The position numbers and the translations under genes were made by a program. From Ahniella affigens (GTDB taxonomy: Bacteria > Pseudomonadota > Gammaproteobacteria > Xanthomonadales > Ahniellaceae): a stretch of 64,000 bases of DNA. The notes beneath the pieces were generated by a model, which saw only the letters and a program-made list of their open reading frames with translations, was not told where the DNA came from and did no database searches. The first letter of the stretch is position 1; each line of letters opens with the position of its first letter. The DNA is taken from positions 868,001 to 932,000 of the forward strand of contig NZ_CP027860.1 of NCBI RefSeq assembly GCF_003015185.1, given 5' to 3'. Below, piece after piece: positions 33,365-43,872 of this stretch.

Positions 33365-33478
33365 GGCCGCTTGGCGTGCCCATGCAGCACGCCATCTCAT
33401 CCGCGCACATCAGGCTTTGTTCAATCCTGTCGTTTTGGGCAGACTCTGAGCGTCGTGTTCATCCAGAGTGGCGTTTCC

Positions 33479-34609
33479 TTGGGATCGAATCGCAATCTGC
33501 GTTACGTGTTCTTTCTGCTGATGGCTGGTGGCGCGTTCGCGGTCACCGACCTGCTGCTAGGTGGCATGCCGTCCCGGCAGCGCGCCACCGTTCCCGCTGA
33601 ATCGTCCGCTATCCATGGCGACAGAGATGTGTCGTCGCAGTCGCCATCTGTGCCGTCGGACACAGCAGACTTTGGGAAACGGTCTAGCGCGCCACTGTCG
33701 CCCGTGGCGCGCTCAGTGCCAAAGTCCGCGCAACCCGAAGCCAACCTCAGCACCGAGCCGTTTCCATTGGTGGCAGTGCCGGTTCGCGATGTCATTGCTT
33801 CATATCGACAACGCGCAAAAGCAGGCGATGCGCGCGCGGCGTGCTGGTTGGGGCGGCGTTTGGCTGAGTGTGGTGTGTTGGATAGCTCCCCGGCGGCCAT
33901 CGCGCATTCTGCCGAAATGAAGCTGGCGCAGGCTCGTGCTCTGAACGAAGACGAAGAGCGGGCACTCGATCAACTGCGACCGATGTTCGTTCGAATGGAG
34001 CGCTGTCGTGGCTTGACGACGGCTGACTATCGCGAGGCGTATCCGTTGCTTCGTCAGGCCGCCGTTGCCGGCAGTAGCGATGCGTTGGCAACCCTTGCGG
34101 ATACGTTCAGTGCGTTGGGGCCAGGCATGCCCAATCCGTCGGATTTTCGTCAATACAGTGTCGAGCGGGATGCCGTGCTGTGGTCTGGGATGCTTGCTGG
34201 AAACACCAAGTCGTTCAATGTGCTGACGGGTTTGAGTAGTCCCCACGGCATCGGTCTGCAATCGTACGATGCCCGCGGTGAACCCATCAGCCGGGAGCGA
34301 GTCGGAATCCTTGCTGAGGTGCTAGCGCGGCTTCGTCAACGCGTTGAACAGGCGCATCCGGACCTTCATTTGGGAATGGCGACGGCCAACCGTGACAGTC
34401 CAGCCAATTCCGCAATGATCTTGACGCCCGAGCAGGACCGACGTGTCAACGACTTGGTGACGCAGATCTTCGAGCGCGGCTGGTCAGATGCGGCACGAGT
34501 CAAGGCGCGAAATAAAGTGCGTCCGATGATTCGCTTTGACGATGACTGCGAAGATTTTGATGCAACGTTTGATCCTGCGCTGAGTTTGAGCAAGGCGGTG
34601 CCAGAATGA
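33479..34609 (+). CDS. Array protein A1: membrane-anchored Sel1-like protein, four conserved Cys
   Basis: First of six paralogous genes. No ATG stands at the natural N-terminus; the frame is open from a TTG at 33371. I place the start at a TTG followed by GGATCG because the homologous gene A2 has the same context and the two proteins then have 376 and 375 residues; a GTG at 33455 is the main alternative. A short positive segment precedes a membrane helix (YVFFLLMAGGAFAVTDLLLGG), then a Ser/Pro-rich linker. The Sel1-like repeat YRQRAKAGDARAACWLGRRL carries Cys122 and Cys131; Cys176 (MERCRGL) and Cys357 (DDDCEDF) complete the framework. PLLRQAAVAGSSDAL is the second repeat. FERGWSDAARVKAR is shared with A2. 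It overlaps B1 by four bases. Function unknown. Confidence 0.85.
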   Translation: MGSNRNLRYVFFLLMAGGAFAVTDLLLGGMPSRQRATVPAESSAIHGDRDVSSQSPSVPSDTADFGKRSSAPLSPVARSVPKSAQPEANLSTEPFPLVAVPVRDVIASYRQRAKAGDARAACWLGRRLAECGVLDSSPAAIAHSAEMKLAQARALNEDEERALDQLRPMFVRMERCRGLTTADYREAYPLLRQAAVAGSSDALATLADTFSALGPGMPNPSDFRQYSVERDAVLWSGMLAGNTKSFNVLTGLSSPHGIGLQSYDARGEPISRERVGILAEVLARLRQRVEQAHPDLHLGMATANRDSPANSAMILTPEQDRRVNDLVTQIFERGWSDAARVKARNKVRPMIRFDDDCEDFDATFDPALSLSKAVPE

Positions 34610-35649
34610 ACCCAAGTTGGCGACTGTTTCTGCTGGCGGTGTTATTGGGGTCATGTCTTGCAGGCCTGAAGCACTGGTGGCTAATTCCCGCGTCGGCGCC
34701 CACTTCGGCGGAGACGCCGACCTCGGAAACGGCCCAATTGTCCCAAACTGATCGATCGACAATATCGGGTGGCCTGCCTGACACGAAACCGGCCACCGCT
34801 ATGCGCGCCTTGCCGGCACCCACACCGCGATCTACGTGGGCGCCATTGCCTGCGATCGACTTGCCGATTGCGGCAGCTTATCCGACACTGAAGGCACGTG
34901 CCGATCAGGGCGATGCGTCGGCCGCCTGTCGGCTGGCGGCAGAGCTCGATTGGTGTGCGACGCGACTCGATTGGATTCAATCGGCACCATCCGACCGGCG
35001 CATGGCCGTGATTCAGGAACTCGACCCAGACAACCATTGCAGCGGGCTTCAGCCCAATGCCGCCAAGGACCGCTTGCACTATCTGCGCCAAGCGGCGTTG
35101 GCCGGCAATCTGGATGCCATGGCCAATTACGTTTCCGCTTATCTCATGATGACGCACCCGGACCTAGCTGCCGACTATCTGGAGGCCTATGCGTGGGAAG
35201 CGCCCAAACTCGCCGAAGCCGGAGTCAAGGCGGGGTCGGTACAGATGCTGAACGAACTGGCGCTGTCGTATGGTCGGCACAATCGGTTCTCGTGGTTGAG
35301 TCGGGCGACCAATCAAACGTGGCAGCAGTCACGTCTGGTTGTCTTGCAAGAGCTCAGCAGGCTGGTATCTGGCCGGCCCATGGCGCCGGGTTCGGGCAAT
35401 CCAGCCGCTGCCAACGATCCCGCCATGTACGCGACACTCGGCCTGTCAGCTGACGCAGTGGCCAAGCTGCGCGCGCAGGCGGCGGCCTGGCACCAGGAGT
35501 GGTTTCAAGGGAAGCCGAAGTACCCAGGGGTGAGCACTTACACGATCAAGCCTTCTGGCAACCGGCGTCCTGATTTCAATCTGCCGTGTTCTGATGGTTT
35601 TATCGACGCACCGTTGCAGGACCCAGGCATTGCGTGGCCGGACGCGTGA
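34606..35649 (+). CDS. Array protein B1: membrane-anchored Sel1-like protein, four conserved Cys
   Basis: 347 residues; the ATG overlaps the A1 stop (ATGA). The N-terminal helix LFLLAVLLGSCLAGL is followed by a Pro/Ser/Thr-rich linker and WAPLPAIDLPIAAAYPTLKA, the type-B signature. The Sel1-like repeat ARADQGDASAACRLAAELDW carries Cys108 and Cys117 (C-x8-C). Cys145 lies in DPDNHCSGLQ and Cys328 in DFNLPCSDGF; LHYLRQAALAGNLDAM is the second repeat. The end (IDAPLQDPGIAWPDA) is repeated in B2 and B3 as I-[DE]-x-P-L-x-x-P-x-I-x-W. Extra Cys17 sits in the helix but not in a lipobox context. Predicted topology: N-in, large periplasmic domain. Function unknown. Confidence 0.87.
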   Translation: MNPSWRLFLLAVLLGSCLAGLKHWWLIPASAPTSAETPTSETAQLSQTDRSTISGGLPDTKPATAMRALPAPTPRSTWAPLPAIDLPIAAAYPTLKARADQGDASAACRLAAELDWCATRLDWIQSAPSDRRMAVIQELDPDNHCSGLQPNAAKDRLHYLRQAALAGNLDAMANYVSAYLMMTHPDLAADYLEAYAWEAPKLAEAGVKAGSVQMLNELALSYGRHNRFSWLSRATNQTWQQSRLVVLQELSRLVSGRPMAPGSGNPAAANDPAMYATLGLSADAVAKLRAQAAAWHQEWFQGKPKYPGVSTYTIKPSGNRRPDFNLPCSDGFIDAPLQDPGIAWPDA

Positions 35650-35808
35650 GTGCGAGGATGCGCGGCTGGAAATGAGCGATTGGGAGTGCGGCCGATTGCT
35701 CTGTCTCGTCGAGTGATTCCCTGAGCGGAGATTCGCGCAAAACGCTCATTGCTGCGTGTATCTGGTTCATGCAAACTCAGGTTCGTGCCGCCATTCTGGA
35801 CAAGTTCC

Positions 35809-36936
35809 TTGGGATCGTCGCCGTTGCGTCATGTGCTTGCCTGTCTTGCGCTGGGGCTCGTTGCCTTCGGGTTGGGTTTCTCTTATTGGCGGACTGAGCC
35901 TAGGTTCGATCGCCAGTCTGCTTCGCAAGAGTTGCCTGCTGCGGCCAGGGCCTTGAGTGGGCCGGAGCCCGCAAGCAGGCCAGGTCCAAAGGCGACCATG
36001 ATTGCGGCGGACAAGGCCCAAATCCTGCAGTCGGCGCCGGTTGCGCCAACGGCGTTCAGCGCAGTGCGTGACGTACCGCACGAGCCGTTTCCAGCGCTCG
36101 ACGTTCCCGTTCGAACGGTCTTCGATCAGTACCTGACGCGCGCCGAAGCGGGTGACGCCAAAGCGGCCTGTTGGCTTGGTCAACGTTTAGCCGAGTGCAC
36201 GCGCAGTCAGCTTGACCGCGAGAAGACGTTGAGGCAGGCGGGCGCTTCTCTGGATCCGAAGATGCCTGATTCCGAGGTGGCGTTGCGTCTTGAAACCGAA
36301 GCTCAGCGTTTGGCGCAGATCAATCGTTGCGAGGGTATCGGCGCCCAACAATTTCGATTTGCATTGCCACTGCTCAGGCAAGCGGCTTTAGCGGGTAGCG
36401 TCGAAGCGGCGTCGAGTTTGATGCGCAATCCTAATGCGCTGGGGCCAGGTATGCCGGAGCCTGAGTCGCTACGCCTGCTGGCTCGCGACCAAGCCGGATT
36501 GGCCTGGTCAGGAATTCAGGCTGGCAGTTTTGATGCGCTGGTCAGATTGTCTGAAATGTCAGTGACCACAGGCACGTCTATGGCCATCGGGAACTCCCAG
36601 AGCGTCAGCATGAGCGGTGATGAGCGGCTGATGCTGCATCAGCTGATGCAGCGTTTGCAACAGCGTCTGCACACGACCTATCCGGATCTGCGCGGACACT
36701 GGATGTTTGCCGGCATGCTGCTCAACGAGCGTCAGCCAAATGAGCCGCTCGCGCCTCAGCAAATCGCTCGCATCCATCAACTCGCGGACCAGTTGTTTGA
36801 GCGAGGCTGGTCCGACGCCAAGCGGGTTCGCGCCCGGGCAGCCCAGCGGTTCAAAGTGCAGGTGGAGTCCGATTGCCAAGAATTTGCTGCACCGTTCGAG
36901 CCTGATTTTCGCTTGAGCGAGGTCTTGCAGCCATGA
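35809..36936 (+). CDS. Array protein A2: paralogue of A1
   Basis: Start uncertain, as in A1: I use TTG at 35809 (GTTCCTTGGGATCG, the context shared with A1); GTG at 35785 is the alternative. From 35809 it has 375 residues. Membrane helix HVLACLALGLVAFGLGFSYW. The repeat YLTRAEAGDAKAACWLGQRL holds Cys121 and Cys130; Cys174 is in QINRCEGIG and Cys356 in ESDCQEF, almost the same numbers as in A1. ALGPGMPEPESLRLLARDQA and FERGWSDAKRVRAR repeat A1 segments, so the pair are recent relatives. It begins 159 bp after B1, the only real gap inside the array, and overlaps B2 by four bases. Function unknown. Confidence 0.85.
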   Translation: MGSSPLRHVLACLALGLVAFGLGFSYWRTEPRFDRQSASQELPAAARALSGPEPASRPGPKATMIAADKAQILQSAPVAPTAFSAVRDVPHEPFPALDVPVRTVFDQYLTRAEAGDAKAACWLGQRLAECTRSQLDREKTLRQAGASLDPKMPDSEVALRLETEAQRLAQINRCEGIGAQQFRFALPLLRQAALAGSVEAASSLMRNPNALGPGMPEPESLRLLARDQAGLAWSGIQAGSFDALVRLSEMSVTTGTSMAIGNSQSVSMSGDERLMLHQLMQRLQQRLHTTYPDLRGHWMFAGMLLNERQPNEPLAPQQIARIHQLADQLFERGWSDAKRVRARAAQRFKVQVESDCQEFAAPFEPDFRLSEVLQP

Positions 36937-37985
36937 GAGTTTGGCCTCTTGCGTATCTCGGCTCAGTGCTGGTCGGTCTGTTCGCGGCGTGGGTTTACCG
37001 CGCGCAGCAGCCAACAACAATTGAAGCCACGATCGTGTCAATCGACGCTTCTGGACCAGTGGCGAGGAATCAGAAATCCTTGAGCAAAGCGGAAAATCCG
37101 CGCCCGTTCTTCCGACCGGCAGTGCCTCCCAGTGAACCCGGGCGTTGGTCACCATTGCCGTCGCTGAATGCCCCATTGGCGGCACTGTATCCGATCTTGA
37201 AAGCACGCGCGGACCAGGGCGATGCACCGGCCGCGTGTCGTCTCTCGGCTGAACTCCATTGGTGTACGCGCGTCCAGGAGGCAATTGACTTTGAAGTATC
37301 AGCGAATCGAATCAAGGTCCAAAAACGGCTCGATCCCGATGGACATTGTTCGGGCGTGAGCGCGTCGCACCGGCGACAGGCAATCGGCTATGCGCGCCAG
37401 GCCGCTCTGGCTGGGAGTCTCAGCGCTATCGAAGCCTATGTTGGCGGCGACTTGATGTCGGCAGATATTGAAGCGGCAGCAGACTACGTAGCCGAATATG
37501 CCGACGAGGCGCCAAGGCTCGCCGAAGCGGGACTGCAAGCCGGGTCGCGACGGATACTCGATCGCTACATGATGGCTACCGCGGATAGCGGTGGGCTAGA
37601 CTGGTTCTCGCGGGCCGTCGGATCAAATCTGCGCCCGTCGCGGCGAGCGATGATTTGGCTGTTGGCGATGCGGGTTTCGCCAGAGACCGCGCCAGAATTG
37701 ATGGTCCCGGGCGACCCGAATCCGGCGATCCGAAAAGTCGGCTTCATCTTCGATTTGCCCATTGACTCAGTGCAAGCTTTGAATGTTGTAGTGGCCGATT
37801 GGCAGCAGATGTGGTTTTCGGAAGCCGGCCGAGCACATTCGGGTCAGGCAGAGGGCACTCGATCATTCGCCGCGCGGCCCGAGAATGAGCCCCGGCCGGA
37901 TTTTAATCGCGACTGCAGCGAGCGCTATATCGAAGCGCCTCTGAGTCGGCCGGCGATTGTCTGGCCGGAGGTTCGGACCCTATGA
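36933..37985 (+). CDS. Array protein B2: paralogue of B1
   Basis: 350 residues, ATG overlapping the A2 stop. Membrane helix LAYLGSVLVGLFAAWVY, linker, then RWSPLPSLNAPLAALYPILK. The Sel1-like repeat ARADQGDAPAACRLSAELHW carries Cys102 and Cys111; Cys139 is in DPDGHCSGVS and Cys328 in DFNRDCSERY. IGYARQAALAGSLSAIEAYV and EYADEAPRLAEAGLQAGSRR align with B1. The end is IEAPLSRPAIVWPE. It overlaps A3 by four bases (ATGA). Function unknown. Confidence 0.87.
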   Translation: MRVWPLAYLGSVLVGLFAAWVYRAQQPTTIEATIVSIDASGPVARNQKSLSKAENPRPFFRPAVPPSEPGRWSPLPSLNAPLAALYPILKARADQGDAPAACRLSAELHWCTRVQEAIDFEVSANRIKVQKRLDPDGHCSGVSASHRRQAIGYARQAALAGSLSAIEAYVGGDLMSADIEAAADYVAEYADEAPRLAEAGLQAGSRRILDRYMMATADSGGLDWFSRAVGSNLRPSRRAMIWLLAMRVSPETAPELMVPGDPNPAIRKVGFIFDLPIDSVQALNVVVADWQQMWFSEAGRAHSGQAEGTRSFAARPENEPRPDFNRDCSERYIEAPLSRPAIVWPEVRTL

Positions 37986-39100
37986 GCCCTGTTATTCGGA
38001 CTTGGATGGTCCATGGCGTCGTGTTTGGCATATCGGCATGGCTGGGTATGGCTTGTTTGGCGCCTTGGATCGCATCCCATCAGAGACTCGAACGTGATCG
38101 CGAATGTTCTGAGCGCCAGGCATCTCAGCGTATCGCGGCCCAATCCGGCAGGGATACAGCGGCTTTTCGAAGTCCCTTGGCCGCCGCCGCACCCGTAGCG
38201 ACAAGCAGTAGCGAGACCTCTGCGAACAAGCCTTGGCACCCAAGCGTGACGGCCGAAGATCGGTTTGATACCAATCAAGCTACGCCGCTTCCAAGCCCCG
38301 ATCGGCGCATCGATGAGGCGCTGCCCGAAATGCTCGCCCGCGCCGAGCAGGGCGATCATGGTGCGGCGTGTTGGCTCGGGATCGAACTTGCTCGCTGTGC
38401 TGAGCGCTTGCAGACTCAGGCGACTCGGGCGCACGAGCTGGCTTGGTATCGGCGTGCGAACGCACCTGAGGATGTGCGCGTTAGGCTTCTCAAGCGTCAT
38501 GATGCGGAGGCGGCGCGTTGCGCGGGCGTCTTGCCGACGCAATGGGAAGCCAGCGCCACGTGGCTCATGCGTGCGGCCGATGCCGGCAGTTTGGCGGCAA
38601 TGGAGCGTGTGCTCGGCCGCGGGCTCGCGGTGTCTGGGCAGTTTCCACAACGAACATACCTGGAGTGGGCGGCGGCGCGCGAGGCGCGGTTCCGTGTGGC
38701 GCTGCTACGCGCCGGTTCGTTGGATTCACTCGATGGTCCGCTTGCTTTTCGGGGGCAATCGTTGCCGGTCATCATTGGACTCAGCGATTCGGATTTGCTG
38801 ACGCCCGAACTCAGCATGGCCTTTTGGCAATTCCAGGAGTCGTATCTGGCCGCTGTTCAAGGAATGCCAGCGCTCCAGCATGTCGCGCCACCACCGGCAT
38901 TTGCAAAGCCCAATGTGACCTTGCCCGAGGCGCGGTTGAATCGAATTCGGGCGCAGGCATTCGCTTTGGCACGAGCGGCCATCGATTCCAAGATCGAGCC
39001 CGCGGCGCCGTATGTCGATGACATCCCGACCGACACGCAATGTCGTCGATTTGTGGCACCGCCCCAGCACCACGAATCCATCGCCGGGATGCTGCAGTGA
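37982..39100 (+). CDS. Array protein A3: divergent A-type paralogue
   Basis: 372 residues, ATG overlapping the B2 stop. Membrane helix HGVVFGISAWLGMACLAPWI. The Sel1-like repeat MLARAEQGDHGAACWLGIEL carries Cys130 and Cys139; Cys180 is in EAARCAGVLP and Cys354 in DTQCRRF. SATWLMRAADAGSLAAMERV is the second repeat. It has the A-type CWLG motif but lacks the FERGWSDA segment of A1 and A2, so it has diverged further. It overlaps B3 by four bases (GTGA). Function unknown. Confidence 0.85.
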   Translation: MSPVIRTWMVHGVVFGISAWLGMACLAPWIASHQRLERDRECSERQASQRIAAQSGRDTAAFRSPLAAAAPVATSSSETSANKPWHPSVTAEDRFDTNQATPLPSPDRRIDEALPEMLARAEQGDHGAACWLGIELARCAERLQTQATRAHELAWYRRANAPEDVRVRLLKRHDAEAARCAGVLPTQWEASATWLMRAADAGSLAAMERVLGRGLAVSGQFPQRTYLEWAAAREARFRVALLRAGSLDSLDGPLAFRGQSLPVIIGLSDSDLLTPELSMAFWQFQESYLAAVQGMPALQHVAPPPAFAKPNVTLPEARLNRIRAQAFALARAAIDSKIEPAAPYVDDIPTDTQCRRFVAPPQHHESIAGMLQ

Positions 39101-40149
39101 GCAACGAGATATCGACGCGCAAACCGTTCGCGGCGCTGGCGCTCACGGCGCTTCTCGGGCTCTTGGTGGGAACCATCTGGTCGGCGGCAACCTCGATCGG
39201 ACCACCGGCATCAGTGGCGGCCGATCAGCGCTGTCAATCCGAGATCATCGCAACGACGCCAGGCGTATCGCTGGCAAGCCCGGTCACCGTGCCGCCAGTG
39301 CGCCCATGGCACCCCGACGTTCCGATTTCTCCGCGCCATACCTGGCAACCGCTGCCGCCCAACGACATGCCACTGCGAGCGAGCTTTGCGATCCTGAAGG
39401 CCCGTGCCGATCAGGGTGATGCGTCCGCAGCGTGCCGGTTGTCAGTCAATCTCGGCAAGTGTCGGGACATTCTTGAAGCGGAAGTTGCAGTGACGCGTAT
39501 AAAGTTCGCCCATGAGCACTTGCTGCCAAGCTGCGCAGGGATGACCCAGGCAGAGCTGCGGCTGGAGCACCGATATCTGCGCCAAGCCGCCTTGGCGGGT
39601 AACCTTGCCGCAATCGAATCCTACGTTCGAGGGCGCCTTCTCAAAGTGGACCCTTATAGTCATCTGGATGATCTGGAAGCGTACCGCGCCGAAGTCAGGC
39701 CGCTTCTTGAAACGGCAGCACAGCATGGATCAGCGCTGGCGGTCATGTACCTGCAATCGGGGTTCGCGGGCATCTATAGCAACGATTTGGCGTTCAAAGC
39801 GTTGAACCTGCCTTTTGACGACGATCGCGCGCAGGAACTGCGGATTCTGAGCGAATTGGCCATGAATGTTGCGCCGGGACGCGACCAGTCGCTGGATTCC
39901 CGCCGTGCCAGGATACGCGAGCAATCCTTGCCGTATCTAGGTGACCGCTACGATGAGTTGGAGCGCCGCGCGCTGCAACGCTACCAAGCTTGGTTTGGCG
40001 GGCAACCGAGTCAGCAGATGGGACTCGGTCTCAGCGCCCATGATGGACCGAATGGCGTTCCCCAGTTCAACGAGGCGTGCAGTGGGGCGCATATTGACGA
40101 TCCATTGAATCAACCGCCAATTGCGTGGTCCGGCGACGAAAATGGCTGA
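39097..40149 (+). CDS. Array protein B3: paralogue of B1 and B2
   Basis: The start is taken as GTG at 39097 because it overlaps the A3 stop as GTGA, like the other couplings, and leads directly to MSNEISTRKPFAALALTALL; an in-frame ATG at 39040 lies inside A3 coding sequence. 350 residues, the same as B2. Linker, then WQPLPPNDMPLRASFAILKA. The Sel1-like repeat ARADQGDASAACRLSVNLGK carries Cys113 and Cys122; Cys146 is in LLPSCAGMTQ and Cys328 in FNEACSGAH, the same residue number as in B1 and B2. RYLRQAALAGNLAAIESYV matches the other B repeats, and the end is IDDPLNQPPIAWSG. Last gene of the array; preT follows after 220 bp. Function unknown. Confidence 0.86.
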   Translation: MSNEISTRKPFAALALTALLGLLVGTIWSAATSIGPPASVAADQRCQSEIIATTPGVSLASPVTVPPVRPWHPDVPISPRHTWQPLPPNDMPLRASFAILKARADQGDASAACRLSVNLGKCRDILEAEVAVTRIKFAHEHLLPSCAGMTQAELRLEHRYLRQAALAGNLAAIESYVRGRLLKVDPYSHLDDLEAYRAEVRPLLETAAQHGSALAVMYLQSGFAGIYSNDLAFKALNLPFDDDRAQELRILSELAMNVAPGRDQSLDSRRARIREQSLPYLGDRYDELERRALQRYQAWFGGQPSQQMGLGLSAHDGPNGVPQFNEACSGAHIDDPLNQPPIAWSGDENG

Positions 40150-41725: not shown

Positions 41726-42781
41726 ATGCTCACGTTTCTGAAAATTCTGCTCGCGGTATTCATCACAATCATCATTCTGATTGCGTTGGTGTTCTATTGG
41801 CTGAAGCGCAAGTTCGGACGCTTCGTCAAGAACGCGATGCAGATGGCCGCTTTGCTGCCCAGGATGCCGATGCGGGTGCGCCTGCAGCCAATGACCCGGT
41901 TTGATGCGGAAGACGCGGGCTTGGATGAGACTGCCACGGCCCAACTCACCACGTATCAGGAAGACTTGCAGCGGCTCGGTTTCAGCCAGACGGGGTTGTT
42001 CGAGAGTGAGCGCGGATCGTTGCTGGCGTACCGCCACCCTGACCGACCCGTTCTCGTGCTGCTTTGTGCCGAGGCGTCGCAATGCACCTTGGAGACGTTG
42101 GCGTTGAGTCGAGAGCCGAAGGCCTATTGGCAACGCCACGACAACGACCCGCAGACGCTTGAACTCTCCCATCTGTCGCTGCAAGTCGGGCCGTTGTCCG
42201 ATGTTGCGTCAGCCGTCGGCGCAGCCGAAGCGCGCCAGTCTGACTTGCGGCCGCTCGGCCCTGAGCATGTCGTTAGCCTGTATGAACGGGTTGCCGCCAT
42301 GGAGGCGGACCATTTCCTGGCGGAGAAGCCGAGCTCGCAATGGATTCGCCAGCGCGTTGGTAAGGACAAGGCGGCTGGCCTGGACGCGGCGAAGTGGGCT
42401 GAACTCGAACAGTCGGTCGAACAGCAGTGGTATGGCGCTTTGCAGAGCGCGCTGAACGATGAGGCGCGTCGGCAACTCGGCTGGTCGCAGGAAACATGGG
42501 ATCGACTGTCTCAGCACCTCGCGTTGGTGCACCGCTACTTTAAGGCTGGTGAAATCAGCAGTTGGTTCAACGAGGAGCCACTGACAGAGCGCCTGGTGCA
42601 GCAGTTGCAACAACAACAGCTGACTGACCGACAAGTCTTCGATGAGGTCAACCAGCGGGTGGATGCACCGAACAAACTAGTACGCGTAGCGCAACTCAAG
42701 GCGCCGATTCCGGCTGATGTGTATCTGCCAGAGCGGTTTCTAGAATTCGCCAAACAAATTGATGCGGCATTGATTCCATGA
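41726..42781 (+). CDS. Single-pass membrane protein of unknown function
   Basis: 351 residues. The N-terminal helix FLKILLAVFITIIILIALVF is followed by a basic stop (YWLKRKFGRFVKNAM), so most of the chain is predicted cytoplasmic or periplasmic soluble domain; the positive residues after the helix favour N-out/C-in. The rest is mixed helical with a Gln-rich segment (LVQQLQQQQLTDRQVFDEV). No known domain was recognised. It lies 12 bp after preT and overlaps the next gene by four bases (ATGA), so the two form a coupled pair inserted between preT and preA. Confidence 0.75.
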   Translation: MLTFLKILLAVFITIIILIALVFYWLKRKFGRFVKNAMQMAALLPRMPMRVRLQPMTRFDAEDAGLDETATAQLTTYQEDLQRLGFSQTGLFESERGSLLAYRHPDRPVLVLLCAEASQCTLETLALSREPKAYWQRHDNDPQTLELSHLSLQVGPLSDVASAVGAAEARQSDLRPLGPEHVVSLYERVAAMEADHFLAEKPSSQWIRQRVGKDKAAGLDAAKWAELEQSVEQQWYGALQSALNDEARRQLGWSQETWDRLSQHLALVHRYFKAGEISSWFNEEPLTERLVQQLQQQQLTDRQVFDEVNQRVDAPNKLVRVAQLKAPIPADVYLPERFLEFAKQIDAALIP

Positions 42782-43872
42782 AAGAGTTTGTTTACGAAGC
42801 AATCGATGCGGCAGGGCAGAAGCGGCAAGGCAGTATCGTGGCGACGACCATTGCTGACGCCCGGTTCCAACTGACCCGTATGGGCTTTCGACAGGCCCGG
42901 ATCTTGTCGAGCGAGCTGGAATTTTCAAAGATTCCGGAACTCGATCTGAAGGACGAGGCGACCGCCAAAATCTACGTGCAGTCGCAGCGTGATTCCCTGT
43001 CCATGGTCTTGATCCGCATTGCCCTGGGCAACTGGCTCATCTGGTTGCCGTTCCTGTTGTGTTCGGTGTGGTCGCTGGTTGAGGGCCCACCCTTCTCCTT
43101 GTCCGACTACGCCGCGTTTGGTCTGCTGGCGCTGAGCGTTTGGGTGGTCGTCAAGCTGATGATGCCGTCCGCCCTATACAACGTCGTTCTGGAGCGTCGG
43201 ATTCAGAGCGACTACCAAGGCGCTTTGACCATCAGCGGGATCGCGCTCCGCCTGGTCGGTGGCAATGCATTCATGCGCAAGGCGTTCACACAGGAGCGGG
43301 CCAAGGCGCTGGCTGGATTAGGTCGGACTGCCGAGGCTGAAGCCACATTGGTTTCGATCCAAAACGAATTGACTGACGACGAATTCCGGGTCGCCCGAAC
43401 CGGCATGGCGGATGCGGCCCGCAACTATGGCGAGTATTTGCGGCTTGCCGAGGCAAACTATCGACACCGCCCTGACAACAGCGAGATGGCGCTCGATTAT
43501 GCCACCGCGTTGCTGCATCACGATCGACAAGTAGAAACGGCTCGGCAGATCGCGAGCGCCTTCCACCCGAGTGCGCTGAACGAGCTCAGCCGGGCGGGCC
43601 TCAACAATGTGTTTGCCCTGATTGCCTGGCACGAGCAGCAATGGCAGCTGGTCGTTGACAAGATTCAGTTGGTGGAAGCGGCGTTGCAGCCGTTCAAGAG
43701 CAACCCCATGGCACGGGGCTATTTGTTCCGATGCCTGTGTTACAAGGCCAGCGCGCTGCGGCAACTCGGCCGACAGGGCGAGGCAGAAGCGATTTGGCAG
43801 CAGATTGCGCCGGTACTAAATCGCAACGACCCCGAACTGTGGCAGCGAATCTATGATCGCCGCGCCGATTGA
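42778..43872 (+). CDS. Membrane protein with GspF/PilC-like N-terminal motif and TPR-like C-terminus
   Basis: 364 residues, ATG overlapping the preceding stop. Residues 1-45 (FVYEAIDAAGQKRQGSIVAT then ADARFQLTRMGFRQARI) follow the pattern that opens type II secretion/type IV pilus platform proteins (F-x-Y-x-A-x-D-x2-G-x4-G-x3-A-x5-A-x2-L). Instead of the T2SSF domain, two helices follow (LGNWLIWLPFLLCSVW and AAFGLLALSVWVVVKLMM), then an alpha-helical, TPR-like region (TQERAKALAGLGRTAEAEAT, MARGYLFRCLCYKASALRQL). It is not a full GspF. Coupled to the preceding single-pass protein; function unknown. Confidence 0.75.
   Translation: MKEFVYEAIDAAGQKRQGSIVATTIADARFQLTRMGFRQARILSSELEFSKIPELDLKDEATAKIYVQSQRDSLSMVLIRIALGNWLIWLPFLLCSVWSLVEGPPFSLSDYAAFGLLALSVWVVVKLMMPSALYNVVLERRIQSDYQGALTISGIALRLVGGNAFMRKAFTQERAKALAGLGRTAEAEATLVSIQNELTDDEFRVARTGMADAARNYGEYLRLAEANYRHRPDNSEMALDYATALLHHDRQVETARQIASAFHPSALNELSRAGLNNVFALIAWHEQQWQLVVDKIQLVEAALQPFKSNPMARGYLFRCLCYKASALRQLGRQGEAEAIWQQIAPVLNRNDPELWQRIYDRRAD

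What the first reader, a model, noticed from the sequence alone, without database searches (positions are those of the whole stretch)
33479..40149. Alternating six-gene A-B-A-B-A-B array of membrane-anchored Sel1-like proteins
Seen: six consecutive plus-strand genes fall into two types. A (33479, 35809, 37982) has AACWLG in the first repeat; B (34606, 36933, 39097) has A-A-C-R-L and ends in P-L-x-x-P-x-I-x-W. Both types share one N-terminal helix, a low-complexity linker, two Sel1-like repeats (RADQGDASAACRL, LRQAALAG) and four Cys. Sizes are uniform (347-376 residues). Known: Sel1 repeats mediate protein contacts, and some periplasmic Sel1 proteins act as immunity factors to secreted lipases. 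Inference: the array arose by triplication of an ancestral A-B pair, and A and B probably work as partners (hetero-oligomer or matched specificities). An orphan immunity array or a multi-specific envelope scaffold are both possible; no toxin gene is adjacent.
Basis: partly seen in the sequence, partly recalled or inferred. Interest (0 to 1): 0.85.

Follow-up and report, generated by a model that had tools for sequence, protein, structure and literature searches.

The report
Paired periplasmic Sel1-like protein gene array
Six neighbouring genes encode two alternating types of membrane-anchored repeat protein that arose by copying a two-gene unit; they belong to an uncatalogued family spread through the Lysobacterales, and they most likely work in pairs as binding scaffolds in the cell envelope, although that job is not proven.

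Summary
Six plus-strand genes (33479-40149) alternate A-B-A-B-A-B, with 4-base overlaps at four of five junctions. Trees support copying of an A-B unit: A1/A2 and B1/B2 are sister pairs of equal depth. A3 joins the A side only moderately; B3 lies near the B side, unresolved. A fourth A-B pair, same order, lies elsewhere in the genome.

The proteins reach no Pfam, NCBIfam, PHROGs or PADLOC family. AlphaFold models (pLDDT 83 and 78) and a profile search identify a Sel1-like repeat solenoid behind one N-terminal helix, with four near-invariant cysteines. The family occurs in 119 of 398 Lysobacterales genomes. At least 53% of 128 genes outside this genome stand in tandem.

Ordinary immunity roles are disfavoured: the genome has no T6SS sheath gene and no X-T4SS effector domain. 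The array was gained inside a uracil-catabolism cluster; four relatives lack it there.

Best reading: translationally coupled A/B partners forming periplasmic adaptor complexes. An ancestral locus with an ECF sigma factor and a PDZ protein hints at envelope homeostasis. Pairing as a unit is shown; physical partnership and function are inferred. Closest precedents: Haemophilus slrV tandems and Pseudomonas PA5086-5088.

The parts
33479..34609 (+). A1: membrane-anchored Sel1-like repeat protein, type A (376 aa; TTG start, alternative GTG at 33455)
   Evidence: sister of A2 (100/98)
34606..35649 (+). B1: type B (347 aa); AlphaFold model pLDDT 82.7, pTM 0.77
   Evidence: sister of B2 (100/99)
35809..36936 (+). 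A2: type A (375 aa; TTG start); AlphaFold model pLDDT 77.7, pTM 0.72
36933..37985 (+). B2: type B (350 aa)
37982..39100 (+). A3: divergent type A (372 aa); keeps AACWLG and the C..F.A tail
   Evidence: (joins A1/A2 with 84/76, long branch)
39097..40149 (+). B3: type B (350 aa; GTG start)
34606..34680 (+). B1 N-terminal hydrophobic helix (residues 3-25), uncleaved anchor or signal; the other five have one at the same place
   Evidence: secondary structure; hydropathy
34867..35505 (+). B1 helical solenoid (residues about 88-300), Sel1-like fold

Best explanation
The array consists of three copies of a two-gene unit encoding partner proteins A and B. Each is held in the inner membrane by one N-terminal helix, with a flexible linker and a cysteine-stapled Sel1-like repeat domain in the periplasm. 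Shown: the genes, the alternating types, the Sel1-like fold prediction, duplication of an A-B unit, and recurrence of tandem pairs across the order. Inferred: the topology (N-terminus inside, domain in the periplasm), disulphide bonding, and that A and B, made side by side by translational coupling, form a heteromeric scaffold that binds envelope proteins. Each pair would have its own client. The general role would be envelope homeostasis or signalling, because the widest-spread genomic context places family genes after an ECF sigma factor and a PDZ-domain protein (with a putative anti-sigma gene in the closest matches).
For: Paralog similarity and 4-base overlaps. Sister pairs of equal depth, A1-A2 path 1.78 and B1-B2 1.67; A side with A3 and L047_1of2, B side with B3 and L047_2of2, and matching tails in the fourth pair. 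Sel1 fold: best structural matches LpnE Z 9.6 (B1) and 9.0 (A2), most top rows being Sel1 proteins; profile against PDB chains: Sel1 protein 6ok3 E 3e-5 as top hit. Four near-invariant cysteines, as expected for an oxidising periplasm. Pairs kept as pairs: first and second genes form separate clades over 11 loci behind a TonB receptor. Tandem in 31 of 91 loci outside this genome, a lower bound. ECF sigma and/or PDZ genes upstream in L052, L056, L061, L105, L114, L125, L126, L128 and L130; the putative anti-sigma gene detected in L105, L125, L126 and L128. Sel1-like periplasmic adaptors are known: ExoR binds and inhibits the sensor kinase ExoS (PMC7327166).
Against: No complex was predicted or measured. 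About half of the family genes stand alone, so a partner is not always needed. The window array itself has no sigma factor, PDZ gene or other envelope gene next to it; it sits among uracil-catabolism genes. Foldseek alone gave no match under E 0.5, and helical repeats produce middling Z values easily (notes). Conserved neighbours may only reflect shared descent.
Confidence: 0.42

Rival explanations
1. Ordinary paralog expansion without partnership: tandem duplication of a family prone to it, with A and B having drifted apart; the alternation is only the footprint of a two-gene duplication unit.
For: Sixty of 91 loci outside this genome hold a single detected gene (tandem counts are lower bounds). 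Tandem duplicates of the family seem to have arisen more than once (copies in L065, L056 and L129 group with each other). All six are deeply diverged from one another.
Against: A-B order is kept in four pairs of this genome, and both genes are kept in 11 of 11 loci of the TonB-receptor context, which drift alone would not favour. Open frames with shared signatures suggest that all six are under constraint.
Confidence: 0.28
2. Orphan immunity array: periplasmic Sel1-like proteins that neutralise secreted antibacterial enzymes of rivals, as PA5086-PA5088 neutralise PldB.
For: Precedent of tandem Sel1-like immunity proteins (PMC13133936). PA5086 (6lch) is among the structural matches, Z 5.7 over model residues 65-346. 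Multiple diverged copies fit varied specificities.
Against: No T6SS sheath gene in this genome (control positive in E. coli). No XVIPCD effector domain in this genome or in eight other carriers; where present (11-20 copies in five genomes) none lies next to the family locus fetched there. Neighbours in the inspected loci look like housekeeping, transport and regulation genes. Wide vertical synteny does not fit fast-moving immunity genes.
Confidence: 0.12
3. Local role tied to pyrimidine catabolism: the array inside the uracil cluster encodes periplasmic sensors or regulators of uracil uptake.
For: Same strand and embedded between the M20 hydrolase/cupin and preT. Relatives carry family genes next to nupC and rbsK.
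Against: Four relatives have the same uracil cluster without the array. The fourth pair of this genome lies beside hutU, and most contexts elsewhere are unrelated to pyrimidines.
Confidence: 0.06
4. Variable surface or secreted factors, like Haemophilus slrV genes, diversified by interaction with other organisms.
For: slrV genes are also found in tandem, with signal peptides, conserved cysteines and variable copy number (PMC4792463). The array was gained in this lineage.
Against: The N-terminal helix looks like an anchor rather than a cleaved signal, without a conserved lipobox. The family is retained widely and in conserved neighbourhoods.
Confidence: 0.08

Closest known systems
Pseudomonas aeruginosa PA5086-PA5088 (Tli5b), immunity proteins of the T6SS phospholipase PldB
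   Same: Sel1-like repeats, tandem paralogs, periplasmic action; 6lch aligns along most of the B1 model
   Different: They belong to an effector locus in a T6SS bacterium; here there is no effector next to the array, no VipA and no XVIPCD; PA5086-5088 are three of one kind, not alternating pairs
Haemophilus influenzae slrC/slrV (msf) Sel1-like gene family (PMC4792463)
   Same: Tandem genes for N-terminally targeted Sel1-like proteins with conserved cysteines and copy-number variation
   Different: Recognisable Sel1 repeats, signal peptides and a role in survival in macrophages; no A-B alternation described in the passages read
ExoR (Rhizobiales), periplasmic Sel1-like inhibitor of the sensor kinase ExoS/ChvG
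   Same: Periplasmic Sel1-like adaptor with an envelope client
   Different: Single protein, another order, no paired paralogs; sequence relation not tested
Sel1 repeat family PF08238; structures LpnE (6deh), LceB (8sxq), c5321 (4bwr), AlgK (7ula)
   Same: Alpha/alpha solenoid of Sel1-like units
   Different: Members here do not reach the Pfam threshold and have few, degenerate repeats with an extra C-terminal segment holding the fourth cysteine

Membership tests
Sel1 repeat family (PF08238) | Repeat matches the Pfam Sel1 model over its curated cut-off | tested here: not met
   0 of 6 window proteins; 1 of 35 relatives at E 0.3
Sel1-like repeat (SLR) fold | Alpha/alpha solenoid matching solved SLR structures above unrelated rows | tested here: met
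   Sel1-like proteins fill most of the top rows for both models: LpnE Z 9.6 and 9.0, LceB 8.8 and 8.9, 4bwr 8.0 and 8.1. Caveat: Z under 13 can occur for helical repeats; the independent profile hit to 6ok3 at E 3e-5 supports it
PldB immunity proteins (Tli5b, PA5086-5088) | Encoded beside a T6SS phospholipase effector in a genome with a T6SS | tested here: not met
   No lipase or phospholipase beside the array; VipA absent from the genome, control positive
PldB immunity proteins (Tli5b, PA5086-5088) | Binds and neutralises the cognate lipase | not testable with these tools
   Needs a binding or protection assay
X-T4SS immunity proteins (X-Tfi) | Encoded beside an effector with an XVIPCD domain | tested here: not met
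   PF20410: none in this genome; in five genomes with 11-20 copies none adjoins the fetched family locus
Haemophilus SlrV-type SLR family | Tandem array of N-terminally targeted SLR genes with copy-number variation between strains | tested here: inconclusive
   Tandem and targeted: met. Array absent at the orthologous site in four relatives, but no second strain of this species was available

The most novel reading that the evidence does not exclude
The family is a paired-receptor-like envelope system: each A-B pair is an obligate heteromeric Sel1-like scaffold with its own client, and new specificities arise by copying the whole two-gene unit, giving four pairs in this genome.
Probability: 0.18. 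Interest if true: 0.6.

Novelty: new variant of a known kind. Interest (0 to 1): 0.4.

Why it matters
It defines an order-wide family of envelope proteins that the main family libraries do not name, present in about 30% of sampled Lysobacterales genomes including Xanthomonas-like ones. The co-duplicated A-B unit gives a natural set of four diverged pairs in one genome, which makes partner specificity in Sel1-like proteins directly testable by matched and mismatched pairs.

Tried and rejected
Defence-system or phage origin: no PADLOC or PHROGs match. Known family by name: no NCBIfam or Pfam match. Immunity to T6SS or X-T4SS effectors. Foreign DNA: array GC 0.609 against 0.608 for the window, GC3 somewhat lower than neighbours (0.62-0.68 against 0.70-0.75), no strong sign of recent import. 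Promoters and terminators: no more than in shuffled sequence, so operon limits are not resolved. Foldseek alone found no match with E below 0.5; the fold call relies on the second aligner and the profile search. Plasmid record search to name the organism: no match. The first alignment for the genome scan was too divergent; a closer one worked. The original PA5086-5088 paper is not held, so the claim rests on a citing paper. Papers on Sel1 proteins in Xanthomonas gave nothing on this family. Gene calling in high-GC loci was rough; neighbour identities rest on recognisable sequences, a few Pfam scans and tblastn.

Full report
Observation. The six genes are real and lie where stated, with 4-base overlaps at A1/B1, A2/B2, B2/A3 and A3/B3 and a 159-base gap between B1 and A2. 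Pairwise comparison gives two clear types: B1-B2-B3 at 34-38% identity, A1-A2 at 36%; A3 is the odd one, 31% over 162 residues to A1 and about as close to the B proteins. The AACWLG signature is unique to the three A proteins among the family members where the motif could be read, and the PLxxPxIxW tail is unique to the three B proteins. The start codons of A1 and A2 (TTG) are uncertain.

What the proteins are. None of the six reaches a Pfam family, and the representatives tested reach no NCBIfam, PHROGs or PADLOC family. Only one of 35 relatives touches Pfam Sel1, at E 0.3. A profile of the family searched against solved chains puts a Sel1 repeat protein first (6ok3, E 3e-5), followed by eEF2 kinase, AlgK, a designed TPR, MotX and SEL1L. 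AlphaFold models of B1 (pLDDT 82.7, pTM 0.77) and A2 (77.7, 0.72) show one N-terminal helix, a disordered linker and an all-helical solenoid. The second-look structural aligner puts Sel1-like proteins in most top rows for both: LpnE Z 9.6 and 9.0, LceB 8.8 and 8.9, c5321 8.0 and 8.1; PA5086 appears at Z 5.7 for B1. Foldseek alone was not significant. Together this supports a degenerate Sel1-like fold with at least three units. Four cysteines are near-invariant across the order, as expected for disulphides in the periplasm; pairing could not be read from the models. Topology is inferred from the N-terminal helix and the cysteines.

Distribution. The family was found in 119 of 398 sampled genomes of the order (48 of 98 genera). 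Outside the order, matches were few and weak. Named carriers include Pseudoxanthomonas, Arenimonas and unclassified Lysobacteraceae and Rhodanobacteraceae. Outside this genome, 68 of 128 genes (53%) and 31 of 91 loci are tandem; only five candidates per genome were scored in that search, so these are lower bounds. In the search of 101 genomes with up to 19 candidates scored, this genome had ten members against at most four in any other.

Evolution of the array. In both trees A1-A2 and B1-B2 are sister pairs with near-equal path lengths (1.78 and 1.67), which indicates copying of the A-B unit. In the careful tree A3 joins A1/A2 (84/76), and the first gene of another pair of this genome (C1 near 1,458.7-1,460.8 kb, L047) joins the A side (82/87). 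B3 and the second gene of that pair fall next to B1/B2 without resolution. Their tails carry the A-like C..F.A and B-like PIAW patterns in the same order. The genome thus holds four A-B pairs, plus two single genes. The older splits have long branches and are not firmly resolved; the quick tree of 88 rows did not place A3 with A1/A2.

Genomic setting. The array lies on the same strand inside a uracil-catabolism cluster: aldehyde dehydrogenase, M20 amidohydrolase, cupin, then the array, then PreT-like and PreA-like subunits and a cytosine/uracil permease. Three relatives of the same family (L144-L146) carry the ALDH-M20-PreT-PreA-permease order, and a fourth (L147) carries it without the M20 gene; none has a family gene at that site. 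The array is therefore a gain in this lineage. The nupC locus, which carries family genes in relatives, has none here: nupC is at C1 833.1-834.6 kb.

Other contexts. A recurrent and probably ancestral locus reads ECF sigma factor, putative anti-sigma, PDZ protein, one to four family genes, GDT1 transporter, GGDEF protein, NupC, ribokinase. It is complete in L105, L125, L126 and L128 and partial in several others, across at least three families of the order. The anti-sigma label rests on gene order only, as it has no Pfam match. A second context, in 11 loci, has a TonB receptor and exported proteins before a pair whose first and second genes form separate clades. A third has a single gene between an AMP-ligase and a XanB2-like chorismatase.

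Immunity reading. PA5086-PA5088 give the precedent (PMC13133936). Here the genome has no VipA, with a positive E. coli control, and no XVIPCD domain; the domain rings 11-20 times in five other genomes, none beside the fetched family locus. No lipase adjoins the array. This makes cognate T6SS or X-T4SS immunity unlikely; protection against foreign effectors is not excluded.

Mechanism. Shown: two types, unit duplication, Sel1-like fold prediction, recurrent pairing. Inferred: inner-membrane anchoring, periplasmic repeat domain, A-B partnership through coupled translation, and a scaffold or adaptor role in the envelope, by analogy with ExoR (PMC7327166, PMC3460628) and the sigma/PDZ context. Plain paralog expansion remains a serious rival.

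Verdict. A real, uncatalogued, order-wide Sel1-like family with a lineage-specific, pairwise-expanded array. It is a new variant of a known kind (multigene Sel1-like envelope families such as slrV, PMC4792463), of moderate interest until partnership or a client is shown.

Noticed in passing
window 41726-43872: Two further overlapping genes of unknown family (351 and 364 aa), each without a Pfam match, lie between the preT-like and preA-like genes; in four relatives preT and preA are only about 70 bases apart, so this pair is another lineage-specific insertion.
   Followed up: partly
L047 6683-8835 (G000 C1 near 1,458.7-1,460.8 kb): A fourth A-B pair of the same genome, directly after a urocanate-hydratase-like gene.
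   Followed up: yes
L058, L127, L132: A single family member sits between an AMP-ligase and a XanB2-like chorismatase in what looks like a xanthomonadin pigment cluster of Xanthomonas-like genomes.
   Followed up: partly
L124 5741-7532 and ten similar loci (L064, L115-L123): Conserved exported proteins of about 189 and 308 aa without a clear Pfam family lie between a TonB receptor and the family pair (the 189-aa one was not detected in L116 and L118).
   Followed up: partly
L060 7586-8794: A family gene is interrupted by an in-frame TGA, a probable pseudogene or sequencing error.
   Followed up: no
G000 C1 833119-834600 (L148): The nupC locus of this genome lacks the family gene that adjoins nupC in relatives, about 67 kb from the array.
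   Followed up: partly
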